This document shows, one piece after another, positions 7,257 through 24,701 of a stretch of DNA of 28,206 nucleotides. The DNA comes from a virus. The DNA lies in IMG/VR virus record IMGVR_UViG_3300024518_001972, positions 1 through 28,206 of that record, one strand, 5' to 3'. Both the position numbers and the translations under genes were made by a program. How positions within the stretch are numbered: position 1 is the stretch's first letter; the number at the start of each line of letters is the position of its first letter. Below the pieces are notes generated by a model. It had not been told where the DNA came from, ran no database searches, and worked only from the letters and a program-made list of their open reading frames with translations.

Positions 7257-9892
7257 TAACCGCCCCCGACAATTCCGTACGTATCAAGAACGCCGGGAAG
7301 CCCACGAACGACCGAACGCCCTATTTGAACACCGTCAAGATTGATGATCACCGTTTGAACGATGTCGGACCCGACGCCGAGTCCTCGACCGGGCGGACGA
7401 ACGCCTATCGAACCGCTACCGGTGAACGCACCGCCGAACTGCGTGACACCAATCCCGCGGCCTGTATTCAAACCGATCGCACCGCCGAGCGGCGTGAAAC
7501 CGGGGATGAATCCCTCACCGAATGCTGTGAACGGCGACCCGCGTGTGCTTCCTGTTTTGAAATCATTGCCTAATTTCCCTTCGTTCATGCCGCTTCCGGT
7601 CGGCCATGCGAATATAGGATTTCCGTTTTCATCGACACCCACCGGAACGGGTGTATCAATCACACCGGCCGTTCCGATTCCGGTCGGGCGTCCTCCCGGC
7701 CATAGAATCGACTCGATCAACGTCATCAATTGTTGCTCTGACAATCCTGATGTGCCGAACAATTCGCCTTCGGCGATGATTTGATCGAAAATACCTTCGG
7801 CACCCACGCCCTGACTTTGAAGCCCTTTAATAACTCCCGGCAATATTTTATCGCGAGCAATGCCGACGAGCTTGTCGCCGATCGTTCCGAATCCTAATGC
7901 GTCGGACAACCCTTGAACGGTTGACGTGATACCGGAAACGATGTTTGAAATCACCGGCGCAAGTGCCGCAAACGCGGGGCCGATGCCCGGAATTACGGTC
8001 GACGCTAAATTCGTCAACACGCCGGTCAATCCTGAACCGCTGCCGAGTGCACTGAATACGCCTCCGAAAATTCCGCTACCCGCCGGACCAAGTCCCATCG
8101 ACGCACCGAAATCAGTAAACACGGCCGTGATACCTCCCGGCCCGTCGACCTTTCGTGCAAGCGCATCGATTTCCATCCCGGCACCGGCGCGGAATTGTTG
8201 CCACGGCGTCATGTCGACAACGACCGGAACGAGATCATTCGTGATCGTCGCCGGTAGTTCGAGCAATTTAGCTTTCATGCCGTCGACACGCAGGGCGATT
8301 TCTGTTTCGGACTGCCCGAATTGAACGTGTGCGACGTCGAATATCGACGTTCCGAGTCCGGCGATTATCGGAGACAATAGAAATGCTTCCTTCGAAACGG
8401 CTTTTAAACCGTGGTTTTCATCCTTTCCGGCTAATTCTTCGGCGGCTTTTTTGCCGTCCTCCAACGCGCCGATCGTCTTTCCCATTTCGGATGCTAGACC
8501 ACCCGGCGAATCGCCGACGGCATCGACGGCTGTTTTCGCGGCGTCCGGTACATCTTCCTCTAATTTTTCAGCGATGTCGTCGGCACCACCGGCGACGTCC
8601 TCCGTAATGCCGAGCCAATCTTTCACGAACCCCGGCAAGATTTTCATAATGCCCTGAATCGCGGCGGCGAACGCGTCTTTGATGCGGTCCCACATGCCGG
8701 AAAATAAATTCTTTACGCCCTCCCATAAACCGGCCCAATCACCGGAAAACAATGCTTTGAAAATGTCCCACGTCGATGTGAAAATGTGAATCCACCAATC
8801 GAACGCTTTCCAAATAACGTTGAACCCGAACTTGAACGCTTCGACGACGGACACGAATAAATCTTTGACGCCGATCCAAACGTTGTCCATGATGCGGCCG
8901 ATGATCGGCATCTTCGTATCGATCCACGCTTTGATGTCCTTCCATTTGATGATCAACAATGCGACGGCCGCAACAACGAGGCCGATCGCGACGGCCCATG
9001 GATTGATAACGGCCATCAATGCACCGATGCCAAAAATCAAGGGAGGTAAAGCCGCCGCAATCGCCGCGATGACCACGATCAGTTTCTTTTTCTCCGGCGA
9101 CAATTTCATGATCTTTTCCGTGACGGCTTTGAACTTCGCGGCCAACGGAATCAATGCTTCGGTGATGATTTTGCCGAACATTTCGGTCATGTCGCCGACC
9201 GTATTCATCAACTGTTGAAATGGACCGGCACCGGCGGCGGCGGCCGCTGCAGCTGCGCCACCGAATTGCGTTTCAAGCTCGCCGAGTATAATCGTTTGCG
9301 CGTCGGCGAGCCGACCGCCTTCGGCAAGTGCCTTGATGACCTCTTTTTGTTCGACGGAAAATTGAATACCGGCACGACCGAGCGCGCCCATGTTCGCGAC
9401 CGGATCGTTTAACGCTTTGCCCAACATGATTGTCGACGACGTTAAATCGGTGCCGATTTTCTGCGACAAATCAACGGCGACTTGTTGGGTGCGAATAAAC
9501 GCTTCGCCGGAAATATTCGTGAACGTTAAAAGATTCGCCGTCGCCTTGGTCATGATTTCCTCATCACCAAAAATCGAATTCGATTGAATCTCTTGCGCGG
9601 CTTTTTGGAGCTCCGCCGTCGTGAGGCCGACTTGCCCACCGGTCGATTTTAGACCGGCTTCGACTTGCGCGATTGCTTTTGCTTGTTTGTCCCACGCGAT
9701 GACCGACGCAACGCCGAACGCAAGTATCGGGGCCGACACCGATTTTGTGAACGTCTTGCCGACGCCCATCATTTTCTTTCCGGCACCGTTGATCTTCTTC
9801 GTGACGGATTTTAGACCTTTATCGAACTCCTTCGGATTTAATCCGACGCCGATAAATAGTTGATCAACTTGTTTGCCGATTCCTAATGCCAT
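7256..9892 (-). CDS. Tail tape measure protein
   Basis: This 878-aa protein is long, helical and Ala/Gly-rich, and lies between the tail chaperones and the hub, the classic tape measure position. The N-terminus has the typical pattern of repeated helices with GKQVDQLFIGVGLNPKEFDK, then KKINGAGKKMMGVGKTFTKS and AQVEAGLKSTGG. Residues 213-221 include an alanine run. Two hydrophobic segments lie at about 271-294 and 299-316, as expected for a protein that enters the host membrane. A Gly-rich C-terminal tail follows. The ATG at 9892 overlaps the chaperone stop. Length predicts a tail of roughly 130 nm using the usual 1.5 Å per residue rule. Confidence 0.9.
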   Translation of the reverse strand: MALGIGKQVDQLFIGVGLNPKEFDKGLKSVTKKINGAGKKMMGVGKTFTKSVSAPILAFGVASVIAWDKQAKAIAQVEAGLKSTGGQVGLTTAELQKAAQEIQSNSIFGDEEIMTKATANLLTFTNISGEAFIRTQQVAVDLSQKIGTDLTSSTIMLGKALNDPVANMGALGRAGIQFSVEQKEVIKALAEGGRLADAQTIILGELETQFGGAAAAAAAAGAGPFQQLMNTVGDMTEMFGKIITEALIPLAAKFKAVTEKIMKLSPEKKKLIVVIAAIAAALPPLIFGIGALMAVINPWAVAIGLVVAAVALLIIKWKDIKAWIDTKMPIIGRIMDNVWIGVKDLFVSVVEAFKFGFNVIWKAFDWWIHIFTSTWDIFKALFSGDWAGLWEGVKNLFSGMWDRIKDAFAAAIQGIMKILPGFVKDWLGITEDVAGGADDIAEKLEEDVPDAAKTAVDAVGDSPGGLASEMGKTIGALEDGKKAAEELAGKDENHGLKAVSKEAFLLSPIIAGLGTSIFDVAHVQFGQSETEIALRVDGMKAKLLELPATITNDLVPVVVDMTPWQQFRAGAGMEIDALARKVDGPGGITAVFTDFGASMGLGPAGSGIFGGVFSALGSGSGLTGVLTNLASTVIPGIGPAFAALAPVISNIVSGITSTVQGLSDALGFGTIGDKLVGIARDKILPGVIKGLQSQGVGAEGIFDQIIAEGELFGTSGLSEQQLMTLIESILWPGGRPTGIGTAGVIDTPVPVGVDENGNPIFAWPTGSGMNEGKLGNDFKTGSTRGSPFTAFGEGFIPGFTPLGGAIGLNTGRGIGVTQFGGAFTGSGSIGVRPPGRGLGVGSDIVQTVIINLDGVQIGRSVVRGLPGVLDTYGIVGGG

Positions 9893-10193
9893 TCCGTTGC
9901 GCGCGGTCGCGTGATCTGAGTTTAGCTAATTCGAATTCTCGTTCTAATTCGGCCCCGCCGATTTGTTTTTGCCGCCGTTGTTTTCCGGCGTCACCGATCG
10001 TTTGATCGTAAACGTATGTCAGCGGCACGTTGTCTTTTATACTCGAACCGCCGCCCCATTTCAAAACGGCCGTCGCAATGGCGAGCGACCGTTGCCAAGC
10101 GAAATCGGTTTCGTCTCGTTTTTCTTGCGCGGCCCATAATAGCGCGCGAAAGAAATATCGAATTGATAATTTGTCTATCTGTGCCGGGTACAA
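9864..10193 (-). CDS. Tail assembly chaperone, gpT-like frame
   Basis: As an independent ORF this is 109 aa from a TTG at 10193. The frame stays open upstream: before the TTG it reads DFDAVDEAGFRLLG and then LYPAQIDKLSIRYFFRALLW, so the conserved-looking part begins before the TTG. It is in the -1 frame relative to the upstream gpG-like gene and remains open across that gene's stop. This matches the lambda gpG/gpGT arrangement, in which a fraction of ribosomes shift -1. I see no canonical slippery heptamer in the overlap, so initiation at TTG or non-standard shifting are alternatives. Confidence 0.7.
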   Translation of the reverse strand: MYPAQIDKLSIRYFFRALLWAAQEKRDETDFAWQRSLAIATAVLKWGGGSSIKDNVPLTYVYDQTIGDAGKQRRQKQIGGAELEREFELAKLRSRDRAQRNGIRNRQTS

Positions 10194-10234
10194 TCCGAGT
10201 AATCGAAATCCGGCTTCGTCAACCGCGTCGAAAT

Positions 10235-10645
10235 CTAGGAATCGTCTGCGTTGACCACTTCTATGGTCTCCGTCGTCTCGGTCGTCTGACCGTTTGTCGT
10301 CAACTCGGACGCTTCGACTCCATGCCTGAAACTGTTCATCGATTCCCCGACGTCGGCCATTCCTTTACCAAGCACGAATTGAATTCGTTGCTGTGATTCG
10401 GGCGGTTCCTTCATCAATTGGATCATTACGTCGATTTCTTTCAACATATGATCGTCGTGTAAAAGTGCGCACCATACGAGGGTCGCGAACATCGAGGGTT
10501 TGAACGTCCCGTCGTCGAGTGTCGTCAAATCGACAATGACGCCGTGAACTTCTTCGGCGACACGAATCGAGGCGAGCGAGAGCCGAAGGAATTTCGGCTC
10601 GCCGCCCAACTCGATTTTATAGCCGTCGTGATATGCGTTCTGCAT
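10235..10645 (-). CDS. Tail assembly chaperone, gpG-like
   Basis: This 136-aa protein lies between the tail tube and tape measure genes, the standard place for the gpG chaperone that coats the tape measure protein during tail assembly. It starts MQNAYHDGYKIELGGEPKFL, has a helical core (residues of about 24-85, LASIRVAEEVHGVIVDL) and a Thr/Glu-rich tail (TETTETIEVV), as is common in these proteins. The start is preceded by a strong hairpin (10653-10699) that may limit its translation. Assignment is by position and general features. Confidence 0.75.
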   Translation of the reverse strand: MQNAYHDGYKIELGGEPKFLRLSLASIRVAEEVHGVIVDLTTLDDGTFKPSMFATLVWCALLHDDHMLKEIDVMIQLMKEPPESQQRIQFVLGKGMADVGESMNSFRHGVEASELTTNGQTTETTETIEVVNADDS

Positions 10646-14824: not shown

Positions 14825-17026
14825 CTAAACGGTTACATTGTATGTGATTGCAGATCCTTCGGTGTCTCGTTGAACGAGTCCACAGCGTAAGATATACGTG
14901 AATTCTGTCGCGTCGGCGCGCGGGACGCGCTGAGCCTCGATCGTTCCACGACGACGCCAACCGAACATCCAACGGTCGCCGCGATACGCAAGAATTGCGC
15001 CTTTCGCGTTGTTCGCCGTCGTGTCGAGATCAACCTTACCGGCTGCGTTCGCTTTACGATCGGTCGAGCCACGATGCATGTTGTATGACGTTGCAACGGG
15101 ATATCCGTAAACATTCGTCAGACGGCCGTTTTCAATTGTCGCTTGTCCGTTGACATCGCGCGTTTTGAAAACAGGAAGCTGAACGGCTTTGCGATGCGTT
15201 GCCGGATCGATTACGAACTGAACTTTCGTAATGTCGGCACCTTCTTTTCCTGCATCACCCATAAGCGCGGCCGTTTCCAAAAAATCGTTTTCATCAAGCA
15301 CACCACCGTCGCGAGAATTCGCGGTCGTCGTTACAAGACACGATTTCCGCATTCCGTTGAATGCCATGAAAAATTCCGTTCCTCCCGGCGTTCCGGCAAT
15401 ATCGTTGATATTTGCCGACGCACCGGCGGCGGTGTCGCCGTCCAAGACCATCGAGTCGAGCACTTCGCGCCCTTCCTCGATGAAATCGTCACGCAGAACC
15501 GATACGACCGGAAGAAATGAATCCTCCGACAGTTCGCCCGTGATCGTTGATCCGGCCCCGACTTTCGCGAGCGACAACGAAACCTGACCTGTCGTCATTT
15601 TCGATGTCGTGACGGTGTGTGTCGTATCGCCGGGGTTCGCCGATTGTGCCGACGCCTGTGCGATCGTGTAAAATGTTACCGAACCGGTTTTCTTGCCGAT
15701 CGTCATTGATTCGGCTCCGGCAGGGAATTCAATTTGCTTCAACGTCGGCAATACGAACTGCGAGTCACGAATTTCGTCCCATATTTCTGAGGAATATGCT
15801 ACGCCGATCCATTCGTCACCGCCTGCGGCGAGTGTCGATTGCATCAATTCATTTGCTTTCAACGTCAATCCGTTCAATCGGGCAAACTCAAGAAATTCAT
15901 TTTTTGCGAATTTGTACCGATCGAGTTCACCGTCGGACGCCATCAATCGCGATGCAAGGTGCGCGTAAAGCCCTTGTGACGGTGCGCGGTTTTTCGCCGT
16001 GACACCGAAACCGGCATCGAGGAAATCCGCGCACATCGCGAGTTCACAAATCGAATAGTTATCGTACTTGTGATGCGGAATGCCATGCGTAATGATTGCA
16101 GCAGCATTCGTTGCAAAATTGGAACCGCCACCGGCGTTGACTCCCGCTTTCAGAGCGTCGTCACCCGCAGCCGCTACACGTGCGGCTTCGGCCGCTTCGA
16201 GTGCTTTGACCCGTCCGTTCGACTCGGAAACGACTTCGATCAGCGTGTCTAATTTCGCTGAAAGATCCGTTTCTTTTTTGTCGACGGCTTCTGTGTTTTG
16301 AGCTTCGTTCATCGTTTTTGTTTGATCTTTTTCGGGAGTGCTGATATTGATATTTACATCGATCGCTTTTGCGACTTGTTCGCCGTCGATCTTGACTTCG
16401 GTCTTTTGCGTGTCGCCGATCAGTGATTTGAACGTCGGACGGTTTCTAATTTCTGCGTATGTCGCCAACGCATGAGCGTTTTTGACGGGATCGGCTTCGG
16501 CGCGTGGTTCGGCCGGGTTCGGTGTCAAAGAAATTTCTCCGATGATCCATTGATCCCATTGAAATGATTTGCCCATAAACCGACCCGATGCAAGGTGCGA
16601 AAGCGCACCGGTCGACAGTCCGAGGACGCCGCCATCAAGAAGTTTATAGATCGGGCGAAGCCATTTTTGTGCTTCTTCGGCCTCGTTGCGCGATAAGTAT
16701 TCCTCACGTATTTCGAGTTGCCCTTCCAACCACAAACCTTCTTCGTCGATATTGAGTTTCGCCGTTCCGATTTGCAGGTTTTTCAACGTCCCGTCGAATC
16801 CGTGTTGATAATAAATCGGGTACGTATTCCCTTCGACTTCGCCGTAGTAGGTTTTCGCGTGGAAATAATCCCCGATCAAATCAACATCGCCGGGAGAACC
16901 CCAACGAACGGCGCGACCTGCGAATTTGTTGTTTCCGAGTGCTTTGACCGTGTCGCCTAATTGAACGAGTTGACGCGTGTCGTCGACACCGTATCGTTCG
17001 AGTAGGGCTTTCAGTTCGTCATTCAT
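14825..17026 (-). CDS. Prohead protease-major capsid protein fusion
   Basis: This 733-aa protein joins two normally separate head proteins. Residues of about 30-180 match the HK97-type prohead protease (S78): YYQHGFDGT with His75, GLSTGALSH with Ser138, and IIGEISLTPNPAEPRA as the third core motif. Residues of about 230-300 are an acidic, coiled, scaffold-like linker. Residues of about 300-733 resemble the HK97-fold major capsid (DEWIGVAYSSEIWDEIRDSQ, KQIEFPAGAESMTI, VFKTRDVNGQ, GDRWMFGWRRRGTIEAQRVP). The protease part probably self-releases the capsid protein. The Met at residue 239 (ATG at 16312) is a plausible internal start. It lies after a terminator-like leader (17029-17069). Confidence 0.85.
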   Translation of the reverse strand: MNDELKALLERYGVDDTRQLVQLGDTVKALGNNKFAGRAVRWGSPGDVDLIGDYFHAKTYYGEVEGNTYPIYYQHGFDGTLKNLQIGTAKLNIDEEGLWLEGQLEIREEYLSRNEAEEAQKWLRPIYKLLDGGVLGLSTGALSHLASGRFMGKSFQWDQWIIGEISLTPNPAEPRAEADPVKNAHALATYAEIRNRPTFKSLIGDTQKTEVKIDGEQVAKAIDVNINISTPEKDQTKTMNEAQNTEAVDKKETDLSAKLDTLIEVVSESNGRVKALEAAEAARVAAAGDDALKAGVNAGGGSNFATNAAAIITHGIPHHKYDNYSICELAMCADFLDAGFGVTAKNRAPSQGLYAHLASRLMASDGELDRYKFAKNEFLEFARLNGLTLKANELMQSTLAAGGDEWIGVAYSSEIWDEIRDSQFVLPTLKQIEFPAGAESMTIGKKTGSVTFYTIAQASAQSANPGDTTHTVTTSKMTTGQVSLSLAKVGAGSTITGELSEDSFLPVVSVLRDDFIEEGREVLDSMVLDGDTAAGASANINDIAGTPGGTEFFMAFNGMRKSCLVTTTANSRDGGVLDENDFLETAALMGDAGKEGADITKVQFVIDPATHRKAVQLPVFKTRDVNGQATIENGRLTNVYGYPVATSYNMHRGSTDRKANAAGKVDLDTTANNAKGAILAYRGDRWMFGWRRRGTIEAQRVPRADATEFTYILRCGLVQRDTEGSAITYNVTV

Positions 17027-18206: not shown

Positions 18207-19578
18207 TCGTGATCGGGTAATTGTCGACCCACGGCGGCGAAAATGCTGCCGCCAACGGTTCGCCGTTGTCAAGTCGCGTTTGGATCGTTTTCACAATTCG
18301 ATCGGGAATCCCTTCGGTCGATTGAATGAAATCGCGCCCGTAATCGTACGCGTTTTTCTCCCATGCACGAACGAGTTTCAATGTATCGAATCCAAGTGTT
18401 TTCCCTGTCGACAGCGCGAGCGTTTGTTTTTCGCGAAGCACATCACCACCGGCGATCGGTTCTTTCCCGATGATTTCGCGCCCTTCGTTCGGCGTTAGAA
18501 TTCCTTTTTCGACGACTTCACCGACGGCTTTCGCTTGTTCGAGCTCGGCCGTTTGTAGCGATTCGATCAGCTTGTATTGAAATTCAAAATGCAAACCGAT
18601 TGTCGAAAATAACTGAAACACGAGTTCGGCTGCATGATTCTGACATTGCGGGATCGTCGTTCCGGTCGTCATATTCAATTTGTCCTGCTGAGAAACCGCA
18701 TAATTTGCAGCATCCGACGTCAGGACACTATGCGGAATCCGCAACGAGGCGGCGATTGCCCGTCGTTGTTCAGACTCGATTGCGGCGTCGTGCAAATCCG
18801 CGAGCCCGTTACCGATCATTACGGGGTCAACCTTGTCGGCGCGCATGACGGCATACTTTTTCTTCGATCGTGCGCCTTTGAAATTTTCGTCCATGAACGT
18901 TTTTAAAACCGACCGTTCATTCACCGGCGTTTGTGGACCGACAAGCAGAAGCATGTTTTTTAATAAACCGCCTTTCAAATCGCCCGACAAAAACTCATTG
19001 AGATTGTGGATTATCGTCGCGTTTATCAACGCCGCCTGTGCGTCGGGAACCGTTCCGTGTTGTTCGTCGAACACGTCTAACGGTGCAATGAATACGACGT
19101 CCTCGATCGCGAGCGTGACGTCTTTTCCGTTGACTTTCCGGTTGTAATGAACCAATTGCCCGGTCGTGCGGTGATAAATCGGCGTCACCGACAACGGGTT
19201 CATCCAAATCAGATTCACAACCGACCGGCCGGAACGCTCGATAAACATCGCGGCTTTTCCGGTGAGGCATACAGATGCTTCGATCAAAAAAATCAGGTGC
19301 GACAGCTTCGAAAACCACATGTATTGAGGCGGCAATTCACCGAGGCGCGAATCGTATATCGGCTTTTCCCGCTTCGGTCGTCCTTTGCGCCGGATCACAA
19401 ACGGCACATTCGCGACGTCACCGGCGCGAAATCGTACGGCCGCTCGCATGTATGAAACGGTTTGATACGCTTTTTGAATACTGATTTTGTCCGTGTCAAG
19501 GGCCTTGTTCATCAATTGAACAAGCTCGGTTCCACCGGCCGTTTTCAGCGTATGAATATCGACTATTCTACGATCCAT
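18193..19578 (-). CDS. Portal protein (HK97-like)
   Basis: This 461-aa protein has portal-family features: an N-terminal helical/beta clip region with AYQTVSYMRAAVRFRAGDVA, LIWMNPLSVTPIYH, VHYNRKVNGKDVTLAIEDVV (the L...D......), RRAIAASLRIPHSVLTSDAA and a long helix ending EVVEKGILTPNEGREIIGKE. This GI.T.NE.R..... motif near the C-terminus is typical. It forms the dodecameric DNA channel. It overlaps the large terminase by 16 bases, and its size matches the family. Confidence 0.9.
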   Translation of the reverse strand: MDRRIVDIHTLKTAGGTELVQLMNKALDTDKISIQKAYQTVSYMRAAVRFRAGDVANVPFVIRRKGRPKREKPIYDSRLGELPPQYMWFSKLSHLIFLIEASVCLTGKAAMFIERSGRSVVNLIWMNPLSVTPIYHRTTGQLVHYNRKVNGKDVTLAIEDVVFIAPLDVFDEQHGTVPDAQAALINATIIHNLNEFLSGDLKGGLLKNMLLLVGPQTPVNERSVLKTFMDENFKGARSKKKYAVMRADKVDPVMIGNGLADLHDAAIESEQRRAIAASLRIPHSVLTSDAANYAVSQQDKLNMTTGTTIPQCQNHAAELVFQLFSTIGLHFEFQYKLIESLQTAELEQAKAVGEVVEKGILTPNEGREIIGKEPIAGGDVLREKQTLALSTGKTLGFDTLKLVRAWEKNAYDYGRDFIQSTEGIPDRIVKTIQTRLDNGEPLAAAFSPPWVDNYPITNGVA

Positions 19579-20768
19579 GATTCGCCCCCGCGTTCACCAA
19601 AATGAGAATGTGTTGCATAGCGACCCGCATCGATGGCGTGATCGCGAAATTTTACGGGGTCTTCGAGTACACGATTGTCACGATCGACCTTGAATCTGTA
19701 TGCACGAAGTTCTTTTTGCAGATCCGACGATCGTTTTGTCACGCGCAATTTATATGATTTTACGGACTTTATCCCGTCGCCGACTGATTTATCCGACGGA
19801 CCGGCGTTATACCCGGCGCGTTGAAGGTTTTCAATCGTCTGCACCGACGATGAATCGACATACATCGGGCGGTGTTTTATGATTCCCAACGCATCGAATC
19901 GCGCAATCAAATCGTCATCGGTCAATCGTCGTTCATATAACAGTTGATCCCATACGAGTTCATCTTTGCCGTCGCGCGTTTCGTTGACGACGACCTGAAC
20001 AAGTGCCGTCTGATTCGTGAAACCGATGTCGAGTCCATACACCGGATCGATTGCGTCGTCGGGGAATTCTTCTTCGAACTCCCATAGCGGAAATATTGTC
20101 GCTTGATTGACGCCGCGTTTTCCGAGTCCATAGACTTGCCAATAATCGGGGTCCATGTCCTTTAACGACTCGATTTCGTCGACCAACGATTGCGGCAAAT
20201 ACGGATTGTCGATGTACGTCGAATTGAATATCGTGCAATCGTCGCGCGGTAACACTTTCTCGTATATCCAATGAAACTGATCGGACGGATTGTAATCGAA
20301 AATCAGTTGTTTTCGCGTACGGACGCGCAATTGAAGGAAATCTTCTTCGGTTAATTCGTTCGCCTCGTTTGCGAACAACCGATCGCGGCCACGGCCACGG
20401 ATCTTTTGCGCCTGATCAAGTCCGAGAAACGACACCTTTGTGTCGTAATGCGGAACGACATATTCGTTTTGCGACTTGTTGTGCCAATCGGGATTGTATA
20501 AATCATTCGCGTGTAAGATTTCAAAGAAATCAACCATTGCCGAGCCGCGTAACGACGGCATCGTTTTACGAACGACGTCCATTCGTGCGCCATATTCCGA
20601 CGGCGTGAACAACCGTGTCGCGAACGATTGCATGACCGAATACGTTTTCGATGATCGTGTGCCGCCTTGTAAAACGAGGTAACGCGACGTGCAATTGAGG
20701 GTTTCTTCTAATATCCACGTCCCTTCGATCGGCGATTCAATCGTCGTCGGCGTCGTCGCTATCTGCAT
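19563..20768 (-). CDS. terL: Terminase large subunit
   Basis: This 401-aa protein is the packaging ATPase-nuclease. The ATPase half shows Walker A LQGGTRSSKT (residues 33-42), a Walker B-like segment LFANEANEL (131-139) and the coupling motif FDYNPSD (157-163). The nuclease half shows acidic positions in GLDIGF (Asp247), YVDSSS (Asp305) and FRDHAIDAGRYA (Asp380). This is the PBSX/Terminase_3 style. It overlaps the small subunit by 32 bases and the portal by 16, so the packaging genes are coupled. All key motifs are intact. Confidence 0.95.
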   Translation of the reverse strand: MQIATTPTTIESPIEGTWILEETLNCTSRYLVLQGGTRSSKTYSVMQSFATRLFTPSEYGARMDVVRKTMPSLRGSAMVDFFEILHANDLYNPDWHNKSQNEYVVPHYDTKVSFLGLDQAQKIRGRGRDRLFANEANELTEEDFLQLRVRTRKQLIFDYNPSDQFHWIYEKVLPRDDCTIFNSTYIDNPYLPQSLVDEIESLKDMDPDYWQVYGLGKRGVNQATIFPLWEFEEEFPDDAIDPVYGLDIGFTNQTALVQVVVNETRDGKDELVWDQLLYERRLTDDDLIARFDALGIIKHRPMYVDSSSVQTIENLQRAGYNAGPSDKSVGDGIKSVKSYKLRVTKRSSDLQKELRAYRFKVDRDNRVLEDPVKFRDHAIDAGRYATHSHFGERGGESWIVE

Positions 20769-21135
20769 CCTGCCGTTTGTTTACGATCGTAATTTTAAAC
20801 CCTTCCGGCATCTTGAATCCTGAATGCTCAATTTCCTGCCGGTCGCCATAACCGCGTTTTCGATAACGCGTTCGCAAACCGAACCGCAAAGCGGCGAAAT
20901 AGTCCTTGTGTTTCGGTTTTCGTATCAACGAAATCAATTGACCTTCCCATTCGTCGCCGATCGATTCGTATTGTTCTTCCCATGCGGCCATGACTTCGGG
21001 GTAGCGATCCATGTACGCTTTGACGGTGTTGCGCGAACATCCGACGTGACGCGCGGCGGCGGCGATGACACCGGATGCGGCCTTCAACGCTTCGATCATG
21101 CGATCAGGCGTGTATTTTTCGTAGTTCTCAGGCAT
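20737..21135 (-). CDS. terS: Terminase small subunit
   Basis: This 132-aa protein directly precedes terL. Residues of about 9-48 form a helix-turn-helix of the terminase small-subunit type (MIEALKAASGVIAAAARHVG, then CSRNTVKAYMDRYPEVMAAW), followed by a central helical oligomerisation region and an acidic tail (DADSDDADDD). It recognises the packaging site and regulates the large subunit. It overlaps the GNAT gene by 8 bases. Length is at the short end of normal. Confidence 0.85.
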   Translation of the reverse strand: MPENYEKYTPDRMIEALKAASGVIAAAARHVGCSRNTVKAYMDRYPEVMAAWEEQYESIGDEWEGQLISLIRKPKHKDYFAALRFGLRTRYRKRGYGDRQEIEHSGFKMPEGFKITIVNKRQDADSDDADDD

Positions 21136-21670
21136 ATTCGTCGAGTTCTATTCCCCCAATATAGCGAAACGCAAATACTCGCACGTTTTCCCGAAACGAT
21201 GTTTGACGATTCATGTTGCCGCCGACACGCGTTTTCCCGATCGGACGTTGTTCGTCTTGAAATTGCCAACACGATTGACGTTCCATGGCGCGGAATACCG
21301 GAACGCTCGAGAATTTGGCTCGAACGTCGTACCCTTCGCGCGTCATGTATTCCGACGTCACGTTGATGACGCGGATTCCGAGTCCGAGGCCGACATAATC
21401 AGGATGCACAACCGTTCGATTCGAATGCATTTTTTCGCGCGTGTTGACCTTGTCGCGCCACGGCACGTAATTCGCGAAACATTGAAACCCGATTTGATCG
21501 TCGCCGCAAAACAAACCGAACGTTTCGATGTGCCCACCCGGGAGCCGTTCGCTCAAATAATGATACTTGCTAAAATATCGCCATGTGCTTCGGTCGACAC
21601 GCCGGATGTCGAACTGTAGTTTTTCGCGCCGTTCTTTTTTTTTTGAACGGTGAATGTCTGTTTGTTGCAA
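21128..21670 (-). CDS. GNAT-like acetyltransferase domain protein (frameshift partner)
   Basis: As a separate frame this is 180 aa, but its only upstream start is a TTG at 21670 that lies inside the ATPase gene. Core GNAT features follow: KYHYLSERLPGG, GLFCGDDQIGFQCFANYV (beta hairpin), VHPDYVGLGLGIRVINV (acetyl-CoA motif A, V-x-P-x-x-x-G-x-G-x-G) and a following helix. The first 12 residues are translated from the A10 region. It is in the -1 frame of the ATPase, so the likely product is an ATPase-GNAT fusion of 372 aa. It resembles the GNAT-fold Mom type in general, but substrate is unknown. Confidence 0.75.
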   Translation of the reverse strand: MQQTDIHRSKKKERREKLQFDIRRVDRSTWRYFSKYHYLSERLPGGHIETFGLFCGDDQIGFQCFANYVPWRDKVNTREKMHSNRTVVHPDYVGLGLGIRVINVTSEYMTREGYDVRAKFSSVPVFRAMERQSCWQFQDEQRPIGKTRVGGNMNRQTSFRENVRVFAFRYIGGIELDEYA

Positions 21671-22245
21671 TCAAGAATCCAATCCGGTTGCAACCACTCG
21701 ATGACGTCGTAATGACACGAACACAAAACGAATCGCCGTTTATTCCGACGCGCGTGTTTTTGAACGGTGTGTGACATTGCTTTGGCAACGGTGCGGTCGA
21801 CGACGGATGTCCATTCATCGATCGCCACAACGCCTGAGACGTCGTGTGCCATGTGCAATGCGATTTCCGCACGTACTCGTTGACCGTTCGACAACGTCAC
21901 GCTCGGACGAATCCAGCACACAACCTGCGACAATCCGACACCGATCAGCAACGCCGCGCAATCGTTGTATTCCATGTCGTCGGGGAATTGATCAATCACC
22001 GGCCGTCCTAAATCAAGATGTTCGTGAAAACAATCGTCGCCGAATACGTGTTTTGCTAATGTTGTTTTACCGGAACCGGATGCGCCGACGATTAAACCGA
22101 CATTGAATTCGGAATCGAAATCGGCATCAACCGAAAAATGGTGTGTCAATTTCTTTTCGATATCGATGTCGAGCGAGTTCGCGGCTTTCATGCACCGGAA
22201 CGATTGCGACGGTGTCGCCGATAATGTTAGCTCATAATTCTGCAT
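21553..22245 (-). CDS. ABC-type ATPase without transporter partner
   Basis: This 230-aa ATPase domain is complete: Walker A GASGSGKT (residues 54-61), signature LSNGQ (118-122), Walker B VVAIDEW with Glu144, D-loop SVVD (147-150) and a His in SCHYD (178). There is no TM partner, so it is not a transporter; it is a soluble ABC-class ATPase. After residue 200 the frame runs through A10 and gives a tail (KKKNGAKNYSSTSGVSTEAH) that is a shadow of the GNAT frame. A -1 shift would give the fused 372-aa product instead. The gene overlaps the ParB-like gene by 19 bases. Confidence 0.85.
   Translation of the reverse strand: MQNYELTLSATPSQSFRCMKAANSLDIDIEKKLTHHFSVDADFDSEFNVGLIVGASGSGKTTLAKHVFGDDCFHEHLDLGRPVIDQFPDDMEYNDCAALLIGVGLSQVVCWIRPSVTLSNGQRVRAEIALHMAHDVSGVVAIDEWTSVVDRTVAKAMSHTVQKHARRNKRRFVLCSCHYDVIEWLQPDWILDCNKQTFTVQKKKNGAKNYSSTSGVSTEAHGDILASIII
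21634..21644 (-). promoter_or_regulatory. A10 slippery site joining ATPase and GNAT frames
   Basis: On the minus strand the ATPase reads CAA AAA AAA AAG AAC. Its last seven bases (21640-21634) are A AAA AAG, the classical -1 slippery heptamer of the dnaX type. A -1 shift enters the GNAT frame at GAA (21634). A 6-bp stem (TCGACA 21612-21607, TGTCGA 21599-21594) lies 21 nt downstream. RNA polymerase slippage on A10 is an alternative. Confidence 0.65.
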
Positions 22246-22772
22246 TTGTGGCCTCGGTTTACCATTTCGCCGTATAACGTGCGAAGCTCGTTTTCGGATT
22301 CGCAGTTCACGATCAATGTGTTTTGTTCATCTCCGGCGATGCGCGAATCACTGAAATCAGGCTCGCCGATGTCTTTCAACAGCGCATCGAGGTCGTCACC
22401 GTCGAATCCGGTGCCCGATAATCCGTCCGGCGTCTTTGCCAATTCAACAAGCAACGTCGACAATTCATCGTTTCGATACGTCGCAAGGTCGTTCGATCGG
22501 TTATCAACCGTCAGAATTCGCAAGGCACGATCGTCATCGACATCGACGTATTGCACCGGGACCGTTTTATATCCCAAATGACACGCGGCTTTGTACCGAT
22601 GATTTCCTGCAATGATATGACCGGTTGACTTTTGGACGACGATGCGCCCATAGAATCCGTTTTCAGCAATTGATTCTGCAATCGCTCCGACATCTCCCTC
22701 GCGTGGGTTCGCCGGATGCGGTTCAATATCTTCGACTGCGACGTCGAGAGTTCCGTCGTTGACATTTTTCAT
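22227..22772 (-). CDS. ParB/Spo0J-like N-terminal domain protein
   Basis: This 181-aa protein has the ParB nuclease-like core: DIEPHPANPREGDVGAIAES (residues 15-34), ENGFYGRIVVQKSTG, GHIIAGNHRYKAACHLGYKT (51-70) and VPVQYVDVDDDRALRILTVD with NRSND after it. The GNHRY motif is the conserved nucleotide-binding/nuclease box. The C-terminal ~80 residues are acidic and unlike a ParB DNA-binding domain, so it is probably not a partition protein. Its end overlaps the ATPase start by 19 bases. AAAACCGAAC precedes the ATG. It belongs to the phage ParB group usually near terminase or modification genes. Confidence 0.85.
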   Translation of the reverse strand: MKNVNDGTLDVAVEDIEPHPANPREGDVGAIAESIAENGFYGRIVVQKSTGHIIAGNHRYKAACHLGYKTVPVQYVDVDDDRALRILTVDNRSNDLATYRNDELSTLLVELAKTPDGLSGTGFDGDDLDALLKDIGEPDFSDSRIAGDEQNTLIVNCESENELRTLYGEMVNRGHKCRIMS

Positions 22773-23057: not shown

Positions 23058-24701
23058 TTAGGCGAGGAATCGGCCCTCGGCGGTTTCGAATGTAAACTCG
23101 CCATCGGTTGTTTCAATTGCAAACGCTCCGGCTGCGGTTTCGTGTGTGAACGCACCGGCACACGTTTCTAATTTTTGCGCTTCGCTTACGTGGGCAATCG
23201 TTGCGGCAAGCGATTGAGCCGCGATCGTCAACGACGACGTGATTTCTAATTCGGCATCAATCGTTGCGGCGAGCGTTGCAGCGGCATTCGTCAGTGCCGA
23301 CGACGCTTCTAATTCGTTATCGATGACGGCGGCAATCACGGCTGCGGCGTTCGCAAGTGCCACCGATGTTTCCAATTCATTGTCCACCGTCGCCGCAAGT
23401 ACGGCAGCCGCATTCACAAGCGCGGCCGACAAATTCGTTCCGGTCGTAATATTACCCGCGAGCACCGGCGCGGGACTCGATAACGCTATCGATGCTTCTA
23501 ATTCGACATCGATTGTTGCGGCAATTACGGCGGCGGCATTTGATAACGCGACCGATGCTTCCAATTCGTTATCAATCGTTGCTGCGACTACGGCGGCCGC
23601 GTTCGATAACGCTGAACTTAATTCGGGTTCTACGTCTATGTTTGCTGCGACAACGGCAGCGGCGTTCGCTAATGCGGCCGATGCTTCGAGTTCGTTGTCG
23701 ATCGTAGCAGAAACGACCGGTGTCGGACTCGACAATGCCGACGAAATATCGTCGAGCACTTCAAGTGTGCCCGAAACAATCTGCGCGGCGTTTGTTAATA
23801 CGGCCGAAACGTCGTTGTCGACATCAATCGTTCCGGCAAGTACAGCGGCCGCGTTGATTAATCCTGCCGTTATTTCAGGTTCGACGTCAATATTCGCCGA
23901 CAATGTTGCGGCGGCGTTCGCCAATGCGACGCTTAAATCGACCTCGGTTACTGATGAAAACAGCCCCGGCACGTACATCGGCATTCGATTCAGCAACGAC
24001 GGGTAATCATTTTTTATTTGTTGCGTCGTGTGCCACACTTCTTCCGCCGTGAACGCTCGATCATAAATCAACGACGAATAAAACGGGAAATTCCCGACAC
24101 CGTACGTCAGGTTGTTTCCGATTTTGAATTCCCTAGACTGATCGGTACACGCCCCGACCGCTGCGATTGAAACGTCGAAACGCCCGTCGACATAAAACGA
24201 CACGTTGCCGGGATATTCGAACGTCACCGCAATAATGTGTCTTTTTTCATCTGACAATACTCCGGCCGCGTACGCCCACCCACCGATTGAATCGGTTTGA
24301 TGCGTCCCCGATTGATTTCCAAAACGCCAATATCGTTTGTTCGCCATGTACCAATCCCAAGAATCGGTTCCTGATCCTTCGACGGCCATGAATGCGAAAT
24401 CATCGGCGGCGTCGGGTATCATTTCTAAATCCATGAACATCGTACACGACGTCAATAATCGGCCTTGCCGCAAATATGCCGGTGCCGTTGACGGTGTTGC
24501 GAATGCGTTCGTTTCATTGAATTTGAACCCGCGGCCTTCGCGCGGCACCGTTCCGGTGTTTGCAGGTACTTCGGTGCCTCGAATTAAGCCGTGAATCACC
24601 GCACCGGACGCGCGTATTTCGGCGTGAAACATTTCAACAAGGCCGGCGGCGAACGCACTTTTCTTGTTTACCGGATTCAGTATGTCAATCGGCCGGTTCA
24701 T
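23058..24701 (-). CDS. LamG-like protein with 12 x 21-residue repeats
   Basis: This 547-aa protein has three parts. Residues of about 80-240 are a concanavalin-like/LamG domain (SFYVDGRFDVSIA, EFKIGNNL, IYDRAFTAEEV and a terminal NDYPSLLNR). Residues 254-505 are twelve repeats of exactly 21 residues, core ALSNAAAVIAATID, in which AAA is often replaced by SSP or AAQ. Residues 516-547 are three 9-residue repeats (GAFTHETAA, GAFAIETTD, GEFTFETAE) plus GRFLA. It is probably a long beta-helical or fibrous virion appendage with a glycan-binding head. Two more LamG genes precede it. Confidence 0.8.
   Translation of the reverse strand: MNRPIDILNPVNKKSAFAAGLVEMFHAEIRASGAVIHGLIRGTEVPANTGTVPREGRGFKFNETNAFATPSTAPAYLRQGRLLTSCTMFMDLEMIPDAADDFAFMAVEGSGTDSWDWYMANKRYWRFGNQSGTHQTDSIGGWAYAAGVLSDEKRHIIAVTFEYPGNVSFYVDGRFDVSIAAVGACTDQSREFKIGNNLTYGVGNFPFYSSLIYDRAFTAEEVWHTTQQIKNDYPSLLNRMPMYVPGLFSSVTEVDLSVALANAAATLSANIDVEPEITAGLINAAAVLAGTIDVDNDVSAVLTNAAQIVSGTLEVLDDISSALSSPTPVVSATIDNELEASAALANAAAVVAANIDVEPELSSALSNAAAVVAATIDNELEASVALSNAAAVIAATIDVELEASIALSSPAPVLAGNITTGTNLSAALVNAAAVLAATVDNELETSVALANAAAVIAAVIDNELEASSALTNAAATLAATIDAELEITSSLTIAAQSLAATIAHVSEAQKLETCAGAFTHETAAGAFAIETTDGEFTFETAEGRFLA
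23061..23156 (-). repeat. Nine-residue C-terminal repeats (27-bp units)
   Basis: It encodes GAFTHETAA, GAFAIETTD, GEFTFETAE and the partial GRFLA: three and a half 9-residue units with a fixed GxF at the start and ET in the middle. It forms the end of the 547-aa protein and may be a small beta-roll cap. Confidence 0.7.
23187..23942 (-). repeat. Twelve in-frame 63-bp repeats
   Basis: It encodes residues 254-505 of the LamG-repeat protein: twelve 21-residue units with no insertions or deletions. Nearly every unit holds ALxNAAAVxAxxID or its SSPxPVxAxxI variant (units 4 and 8). Nucleotide divergence between units is moderate, so it is an old repeat rather than a recent slippage product. The period suggests one coil or two strands per unit. 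Confidence 0.85.

What the first reader, a model, noticed from the sequence alone, without database searches (positions are those of the whole stretch)
21553..22245. ABC ATPase and GNAT frames joined by a dnaX-type -1 slippery site
Seen: the ATPase and GNAT frames overlap by 118 bases, the GNAT frame is -1 relative to the ATPase, and both meet at A10 followed by G, giving the heptamer A AAA AAG in the correct register (21640-21634). The 26 ATPase residues after it read as a GNAT shadow, and the GNAT frame's own start is only a TTG inside the ATPase gene. A -1 shift gives a 372-aa ATPase-GNAT fusion. Known: A AAA AAG is the most efficient bacterial -1 heptamer. Inference: the phage makes both a lone ATPase and a fused protein, as dnaX makes gamma and tau. 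A sequencing error in the homopolymer (A11) would also give a simple fusion, and transcriptional slippage is another option.
Basis: partly seen in the sequence, partly recalled or inferred. Interest (0 to 1): 0.88.

Follow-up and report, generated by a model that had tools for sequence, protein, structure and literature searches.

The report
Phage ABC-GNAT gene with conserved frameshift
A phage gene appears to make two proteins, an ATPase alone and the same ATPase fused to an acetyltransferase, by slipping on a run of ten A's, and hundreds of relatives keep a frameshift signal at the same junction, most of them one resembling the signal known from the bacterial gene prfB.

Summary
The ATPase and GNAT frames overlap by 118 nt, GNAT lies in the -1 frame, and A10-G gives an in-register A AAA AAG. 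Among 309 distinct relatives, 282 have both domains in one frame; in 24, including the window and its near-twin, GNAT is in -1. One-frame relatives carry, exactly at the junction, a prfB (RF2)-like +1 site: SD (NGG AGG), 3 nt, CTT/GTT, pyrimidine. It occurs in 165 of 217 clustered sequences, against 4 in synonymous shuffles and none elsewhere in those genes. The +1 frame after it is open in 165/165 and ends at one conserved stop, giving an ATPase with a 24-31 aa tail (..LASIII). That is the product the window makes in its zero frame. Sequences without the SD site often have A10, T10 or T9 runs; sequences with it never do (29/55 vs 0/184). So the family seems to make the same two products by interchangeable devices. 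In the window I favour RNA polymerase slippage on A10, with or without -1 ribosomal frameshifting. A near-identical contig has the same A10 but a stop at its edge. Nothing was tested at the bench.

The parts
22227..22772 (-). ParB-like gene directly upstream, overlapping the ATPase start by 19 nt
   Evidence: Pfam ParB_N 9.5e-09, PHROG 723 3e-37; same neighbour in many relatives
21553..22245 (-). ABC-type ATPase ORF, zero frame, 230 aa including an alternate-frame tail
   Evidence: ABC_tran 7.9e-06; PHROG 11143 1.4e-53 over residues 19-202; predicted fold of residues 1-200 confident
21635..21644 (-). A10 slippery run at the domain junction (T10 on the + strand)
   Evidence: same length in a second contig; eight -1 loci with A10 at this junction
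21634..21640 (-). in-register heptamer A AAA AAG
   Evidence: direct reading of the sequence
21553..21633 (-). ATPase tail (residues 205-230 and TGA stop), ends ..GDILASIII*; overlaps GNAT codons in another frame
   Evidence: G..L..I.I pattern conserved in 15 aligned ATPase+tail products; disordered in the model; raised synonymous constraint over this stretch in the fusions
21128..21670 (-). GNAT frame, -1 relative to the ATPase; fused product would use 21634-21131
   Evidence: PHROG 11143 5.4e-17 onto profile 189-352; relatives of the same domain lie in frame with the ATPase
21645..21645 (-). site of the C->T difference in the near-identical contig: ATPase Q201stop, GNAT-frame S9L
19563..21135 (-). 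terminase small and large subunits directly downstream
   Evidence: PHROGs 309, 4044, 3717; terminase genes also follow the gene in Pasteurella, Leptospira, Lactococcus and Streptococcus phages

Best explanation
One gene encodes an ABC ATPase and a GNAT acyltransferase, and slippage at the junction yields two proteins: ATPase plus a short tail, and the ATPase-GNAT fusion. In the window the zero frame gives the 230-aa ATPase with tail, and slippage on A10 gives the 372-aa fusion. I think the main route in the window is RNA polymerase slippage on A10 (mRNAs with A11 or A8 read into GNAT), with -1 ribosomal slippage on A AAA AAG as a co-route or alternative (about 55:35 within this explanation; the rest is undecided). 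In most relatives the polarity is reversed: the fusion is in frame, and an RF2-like +1 site (SD, 3 nt, CTT/GTT, pyrimidine) diverts ribosomes into the +1 frame to make ATPase plus tail. Shown here: arrangement, conservation, statistics. Inferred: that both products are made, their ratio, and the purpose. The purpose is probably to set how many ATPase subunits carry the GNAT domain, as gamma and tau do in dnaX; the literature predicts that the enzyme acyl-modifies a DNA base.
For: Relatives are single-ORF fusions at the same joint. Of 309 distinct loci 282 are one-frame, 24 have GNAT in -1, 3 are broken or unclear. RF2-like motif in 165/217 clustered one-frame genes vs mean 4.0, maximum 9 in synonymous shuffles, 0 elsewhere in 74,641 codons, present in 21 of 30 groups below 50% identity. 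+1 frame open from site to stop 165/165 vs 113.8 expected. +1 stop at the Leu codon of GNAT H-Y-L in 211/217 vs 81.3 expected. Synonymous constraint high from site to +1 stop (ratio 1.48-4.3) and at background before and after (1.11, 1.09). A/T runs of 9 or more at the junction 0/184 in SD loci vs 29/55 without SD, p = 2e-22. Parsimony on a 239-sequence tree: +1 device at the root, at least 16 device changes, window inside a +1 clade. Sequenced isolates with the -1 arrangement: Lactococcus P335, Streptococcus Javan141 and MismyG, Enterococcus 9184. RNAP slippage is efficient at runs of 9 A or T (PMC5009743).
Against: No protein or RNA data. The nearest contig has a TAA at the edge of A10, so it could not make the fusion by slippage there. 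Several members show no recognisable device (T4-like phages, pT24, part of the 'none' class). T10 runs in AT-rich genomes are only mildly improbable given codon usage (10.6 of 16 expected). Sequences are related, so z-scores are not probabilities; the tree was midpoint-rooted.
Confidence: 0.8

Rival explanations
1. Purely dnaX-type programmed -1 ribosomal frameshifting on A AAA AAG, with no part for transcriptional slippage.
For: The heptamer is in register in the window; Enterococcus phage 9184 has GCA AAA AAG in register.
Against: No stable structure downstream and no SD seen upstream by eye; A10 occurs in all three registers with constant length, more in line with an RNA polymerase requirement.
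Confidence: 0.3
2. Assembly or sequencing error: the true run is A11 and the gene is an ordinary in-frame fusion.
For: Most relatives are in-frame fusions; homopolymers are error-prone; all -1 cases would be explained by one lost base.
Against: Same A10 in two contigs; -1 arrangement in phage isolates without long runs; A10 in eight loci. Even A11 would be a slippery run, as the in-frame A10 and T10 relatives are.
Confidence: 0.08
3. Two separate proteins: GNAT starts at TTG 21670 by translational coupling, no fusion is made.
For: The near-identical contig stops the ATPase at the junction; TTG follows a stop in that frame.
Against: The TTG lies inside the ATPase coding sequence with no obvious SD; relatives are fused; the tail end and the junction are conserved; no relative with a separate ATG-started GNAT was seen.
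Confidence: 0.08
4. The conserved SD in relatives is an internal ribosome-binding site that makes GNAT alone, or merely a pause site for folding.
For: Strong SD exactly between domains; a few relatives (L070, L104, L272) have ATG at the CTT position.
Against: CTT/GTT plus pyrimidine is not a start codon; neither idea predicts the open +1 frame, the conserved +1 stop, or replacement by homopolymers.
Confidence: 0.06

Closest known systems
prfB (release factor 2) +1 programmed frameshift
   Same: SD-like sequence, 3-nt spacer, CTT, next base T (or C here): same order and spacing (PMC12421855, PMC3711429)
   Different: A-site is a sense codon (CGG, TGG, CGA, CAA, TGT, CAG), not TGA; the shift produces the short product instead of the long one; different gene. 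PRFect reports that all CUU-stop +1 cases in RECODE are prfB (PMC10885494)
dnaX of E. coli (gamma/tau, -1 frameshifting)
   Same: Two ATPase products from one gene; A AAA AAG in the window
   Different: No structure found downstream; in the window the shift makes the long product, in E. coli dnaX the short one
dnaX of Thermus thermophilus (transcriptional slippage on 9 T/A)
   Same: Long homopolymer at a domain border yields two products (PMC5009743); like the in-frame T10/A10 relatives
   Different: Other gene; in the window the in-frame product is the short one
ABC ATPase-GNAT predicted DNA-modification protein (Iyer et al., PMC7824862; PHROG 11143)
   Same: Same domain pair; the paper names Tenacibaculum phage pT24, which is hit H27 here
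   Different: Frameshifting is not mentioned in the passages I read; the 2013 source paper could not be read
TmcA, tRNA(Met) cytidine acetyltransferase (2zpa)
   Same: ATPase plus GNAT acting on a nucleobase; Foldseek rank 35
   Different: TmcA's ATPase is a helicase-type module, not ABC (from general knowledge); target here unknown
Phage Mu Mom
   Same: GNAT-fold DNA modifier; a Mom appears at rank 40 in the viral fold search
   Different: Profile comparison gives no support (probability 0.6%)

Membership tests
ABC ATPase-GNAT family (PHROG 11143) | Both domains, contiguous on one profile | tested here: met
   ATPase and GNAT frames hit adjacent parts of PHROG 11143
ABC ATPase-GNAT family (PHROG 11143) | Acyl modification of a DNA base | not testable with these tools
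   Prediction in PMC7824862 only
dnaX-type -1 programmed frameshift | X XXY YYZ heptamer in register in an overlap | tested here: met
   A AAA AAG at 21640-21634
dnaX-type -1 programmed frameshift | Stimulators: upstream SD about 10 nt away and a downstream stem | tested here: not met
   z = +0.69 downstream; no AGGAG-like sequence seen upstream of A10, by inspection
dnaX-type -1 programmed frameshift | Both products observed | not testable with these tools
   no expression data
RNA polymerase slippage gene (Thermus dnaX kind) | Run of 9 or more A/T at the switch point | tested here: met
   A10; threshold from PMC5009743
RNA polymerase slippage gene (Thermus dnaX kind) | Transcripts of mixed run length | not testable with these tools
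   needs RNA sequencing
RF2 (prfB)-type +1 site, relatives not window | SD, 3-nt spacer, CTT-pyrimidine | tested here: met
   141 CTT and 24 GTT of 217
RF2 (prfB)-type +1 site, relatives not window | In-frame stop (TGA) in the A site | tested here: not met
   A-site codons are sense codons; so RF2-like, not RF2 autoregulation
RF2 (prfB)-type +1 site | Present in the window itself | tested here: not met
   window reads ACC GTT CAA with no SD before it
Mom family | Detectable profile similarity to Mom | tested here: not met
   hhalign E 0.094, probability 0.6% over 32 columns

The most novel reading that the evidence does not exclude
A large phage and bacterial gene family is built around an obligate two-product switch at the ABC-GNAT joint. 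Its ancestral device is an RF2-like +1 frameshift at sense codons, natural outside prfB, and lineages have repeatedly swapped it for homopolymer slippage, even reversing which product is in frame. The alternate-frame tail ending LASIII is itself selected.
Probability: 0.6. Interest if true: 0.87.

Novelty: new variant of a known kind. Interest (0 to 1): 0.8.

Why it matters
Programmed +1 shifts of the RF2 kind are described, in the sources I could read, only for prfB. Here the same layout sits in a different gene, on sense codons, in phages and bacterial genomes from marine metagenomes to Nonomuraea, and it is replaced by A10, T10 or T9 runs when lost. That makes it a natural test of how selection keeps a two-product ratio while the decoding device changes. 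It also means that annotations showing a lone ABC protein plus a truncated GNAT (Lactococcus, Streptococcus, Oenococcus phages) are probably incomplete. Working out what the two products do would bear on the predicted new DNA-base modification.

Tried and rejected
Literature for a described ABC-GNAT frameshift: none found. COG2401: no paper. Mom homology by profile: no support. Downstream RNA stimulator after A10: none. Genome-wide enrichment of the SD-NTT-Y pattern in three genomes: none, so the motif is specific to this gene's joint and not a general trait. PADLOC hits: ATPase matches mad3 at 1e-10 on ABC motifs only, not taken as membership. Internal initiation of GNAT at the SD: rejected, no conserved start codon. 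Sequencing error as a general cause: rejected for the family, small residual for the window. A first pairwise alignment to the twin contig failed by orientation and was redone. L069/L287 was set aside as a frameshift device because its shift lies inside the ATPase domain. The 2013 Iyer paper is not held.

Full report
OBSERVATION. The minus-strand ORFs 22245-21553 and 21670-21128 overlap by 118 nt, with the second in -1. A10 at 21644-21635 followed by G puts A AAA AAG in the ATPase register. The first is an ABC-type ATPase and the second a GNAT domain. Both hit PHROG 11143, a 357-position profile that covers the ATPase at 16-195 and GNAT at 189-352. The gene sits between a ParB-like gene and the terminase genes, as in isolates such as Pasteurella phage Pmp13 and Leptospira phage LE4.

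RELATIVES. Two viral scans, four later scans of viral and bacterial genome collections and a tblastn of phage records gave 309 distinct loci with both domains. In 282 the domains are in one frame, in 24 GNAT is in -1 of the ATPase, and 3 are in +1 and look broken or unclear. In the -1 loci the zero-frame ATPase ORF nearly always runs about 100 nt into GNAT and ends at the same point, the shadow of GNAT's F-S-K-Y-H-Y-L (..LASIII*). The exception is the window's near-twin, where the ORF stops at the junction. The count of 24 includes that twin (L002) and one locus that looks damaged (L244); the remaining 22 are the ones used below.

THE JUNCTION IN ONE-FRAME RELATIVES. The nucleotides there are conserved beyond the protein: NGG AGG NNN CTT YNN, or GTT in place of CTT. 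The layout is that of the prfB +1 site (AGG GGG TAT CTT TGA in E. coli, from general knowledge; SD, 3-nt spacer and CTTT confirmed in PMC12421855). After clustering at 85% DNA identity, 217 one-frame genes remain. The motif is in 165. Synonymous shuffles with each gene's own codon usage give 4.0 on average and 9 at most, and the same ORFs hold none elsewhere in 74,641 codons. Within motif-bearing genes, Leu is CTT in 146/146 (19.8 expected) and Arg is AGG in 142/143 (11.8 expected); these two counts are partly circular because the class was defined by the motif. The shuffle and elsewhere counts are not circular. The motif occurs in 21 of 30 groups at 50% protein identity. A sense codon always follows: CGG, TGG, CGA, CAA, TGT, CAG and a few others.

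THE +1 FRAME. From the site to H-Y-L the +1 frame is open in 165/165 (113.8 expected) and -1 in 36 (56.9 expected). The first +1 stop falls on the Leu codon of H-Y-L in 211/217 (81.3 expected from codon usage), giving tails of 24-31 aa. Among conserved residues, identical codons exceed expectation by 1.11 in the ATPase, 4.3 at the site, 1.48 between site and stop, 1.65 at the stop and 1.09 in the rest of GNAT. So the stretch between shift and +1 stop is read in two frames.

DEVICE SWAPPING. A or T runs of 9 or more at the junction occur in 0/184 genes with an SD element and 29/55 without (p = 2e-22). Lengths are T10 (16) and A10 (2) where the fusion is in frame, A10 (8) and T9 (3) where GNAT is in -1. 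In T10 genomes, codon usage alone makes the run fairly likely, so T10 is weaker evidence than A10 or the SD site. On a FastTree of 239 sequences the +1 device is ancestral by parsimony with at least 16 changes, and the window lies inside a clade of RF2-like relatives (L003, L010, L006; support 0.90). The outcome is the same pair of proteins: fusion in frame plus a +1 shift to ATPase-tail, or ATPase-tail in frame plus a shift to the fusion. Sequenced isolates show the -1 arrangement without long runs (Lactococcus P335, Streptococcus Javan141, MismyG, Oenococcus Vinitor-27, Enterococcus 9184 with A AAA AAG, Thomasclavelia TR-TP2), so sequencing error is not the general cause. Other isolates carry the RF2-like site (Pmp13, LE4, Gordonia Jace, Arthrobacter EastWest).

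THE WINDOW. A10 is the same in a contig differing at about 14 places in 28.2 kb. One difference, C21645T, gives GTT TAA at the edge of A10. That variant should make a 200-aa ATPase without tail and could not make the fusion by slipping on the run. It may be a real variant or a consensus error, and it is the main evidence against the need for the fusion in this lineage. The A10 of the eight -1 loci starts at codon position 1, 2 or 3, and no RNA structure follows it in the window. RNA polymerase slippage, efficient at runs of 9 (PMC5009743), is therefore my first choice, with -1 ribosomal slippage close behind.

PROTEINS AND FUNCTION. A relative's fusion (L009) is predicted with pLDDT 90 as an ABC nucleotide-binding domain plus GNAT. 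PDB matches are ABC ATPases, and TmcA, an ATPase-GNAT enzyme that acetylates a tRNA base, appears at rank 35. In the ATPase-tail product the domain is complete at residue 200 and the tail is disordered. Iyer et al. predict that ABC-GNAT proteins modify a DNA base (PMC7824862). I infer that the two products set the number of GNAT domains per ATPase complex. This is untested.

LIMITS. No expression data; related sequences; midpoint rooting; members without a visible device (T4-like phages, pT24, several with unusual P-site codons); the Streptococcus/Lactococcus device is not identified. The literature search covers open-licence papers only. The statement that RF2-like sites were known only from prfB rests on PMC10885494, which concerns CUU followed by a stop. 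CUU followed by sense codons has been used in laboratory assays of the RF2 site (Curran and Yarus 1989, from memory).

Noticed in passing
window 10235-10645 and 9864-10364, minus strand: Two ORFs before the tape measure gene overlap by 130 nt in -1 when the second is read from its upstream stop, like tail-assembly chaperones G/GT; no XXXYYYZ heptamer in the overlap and no PHROG hit.
   Followed up: partly
window 14825-17026, minus strand: 733-aa ORF whose major-head-protein match (phrog_617) starts at residue 152; the N-terminal part may be a fused maturation protease.
   Followed up: no
window 23058-24701, minus strand: 547-aa ORF with many near-repeats of about 19-20 aa (ALANAAAVVAANIDVEPEL and variants), no PHROG hit.
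   Followed up: no
L164-L167 and L333, junction: Streptococcus/Lactococcus phages keep a block GTTTTTC..(TT/TA)YCCCCCAC in the overlap; which part is the slippery device is unclear.
   Followed up: no
L006, L043, L053, L065, L070, L104, L105, L205, L354, L365: Relatives with the SD but GAA AGN, ATG GTY, GTG GTC, CAC CGG or CCC CGA in place of CTT Y; mechanism unexplained.
   Followed up: no
L177-L252: Bacterial genomes (Nonomuraea, Planctomycetes, Endozoicomonas, Rhizobium and others) carry the fusion with the RF2-like site; whether chromosomal or prophage was not checked.
   Followed up: partly
L069/L287; L172; L383: Likely damaged members: ATPase frameshift in a T10 phage, broken GNAT in Javan420, in-frame TGA in GNAT of pT24.
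   Followed up: partly
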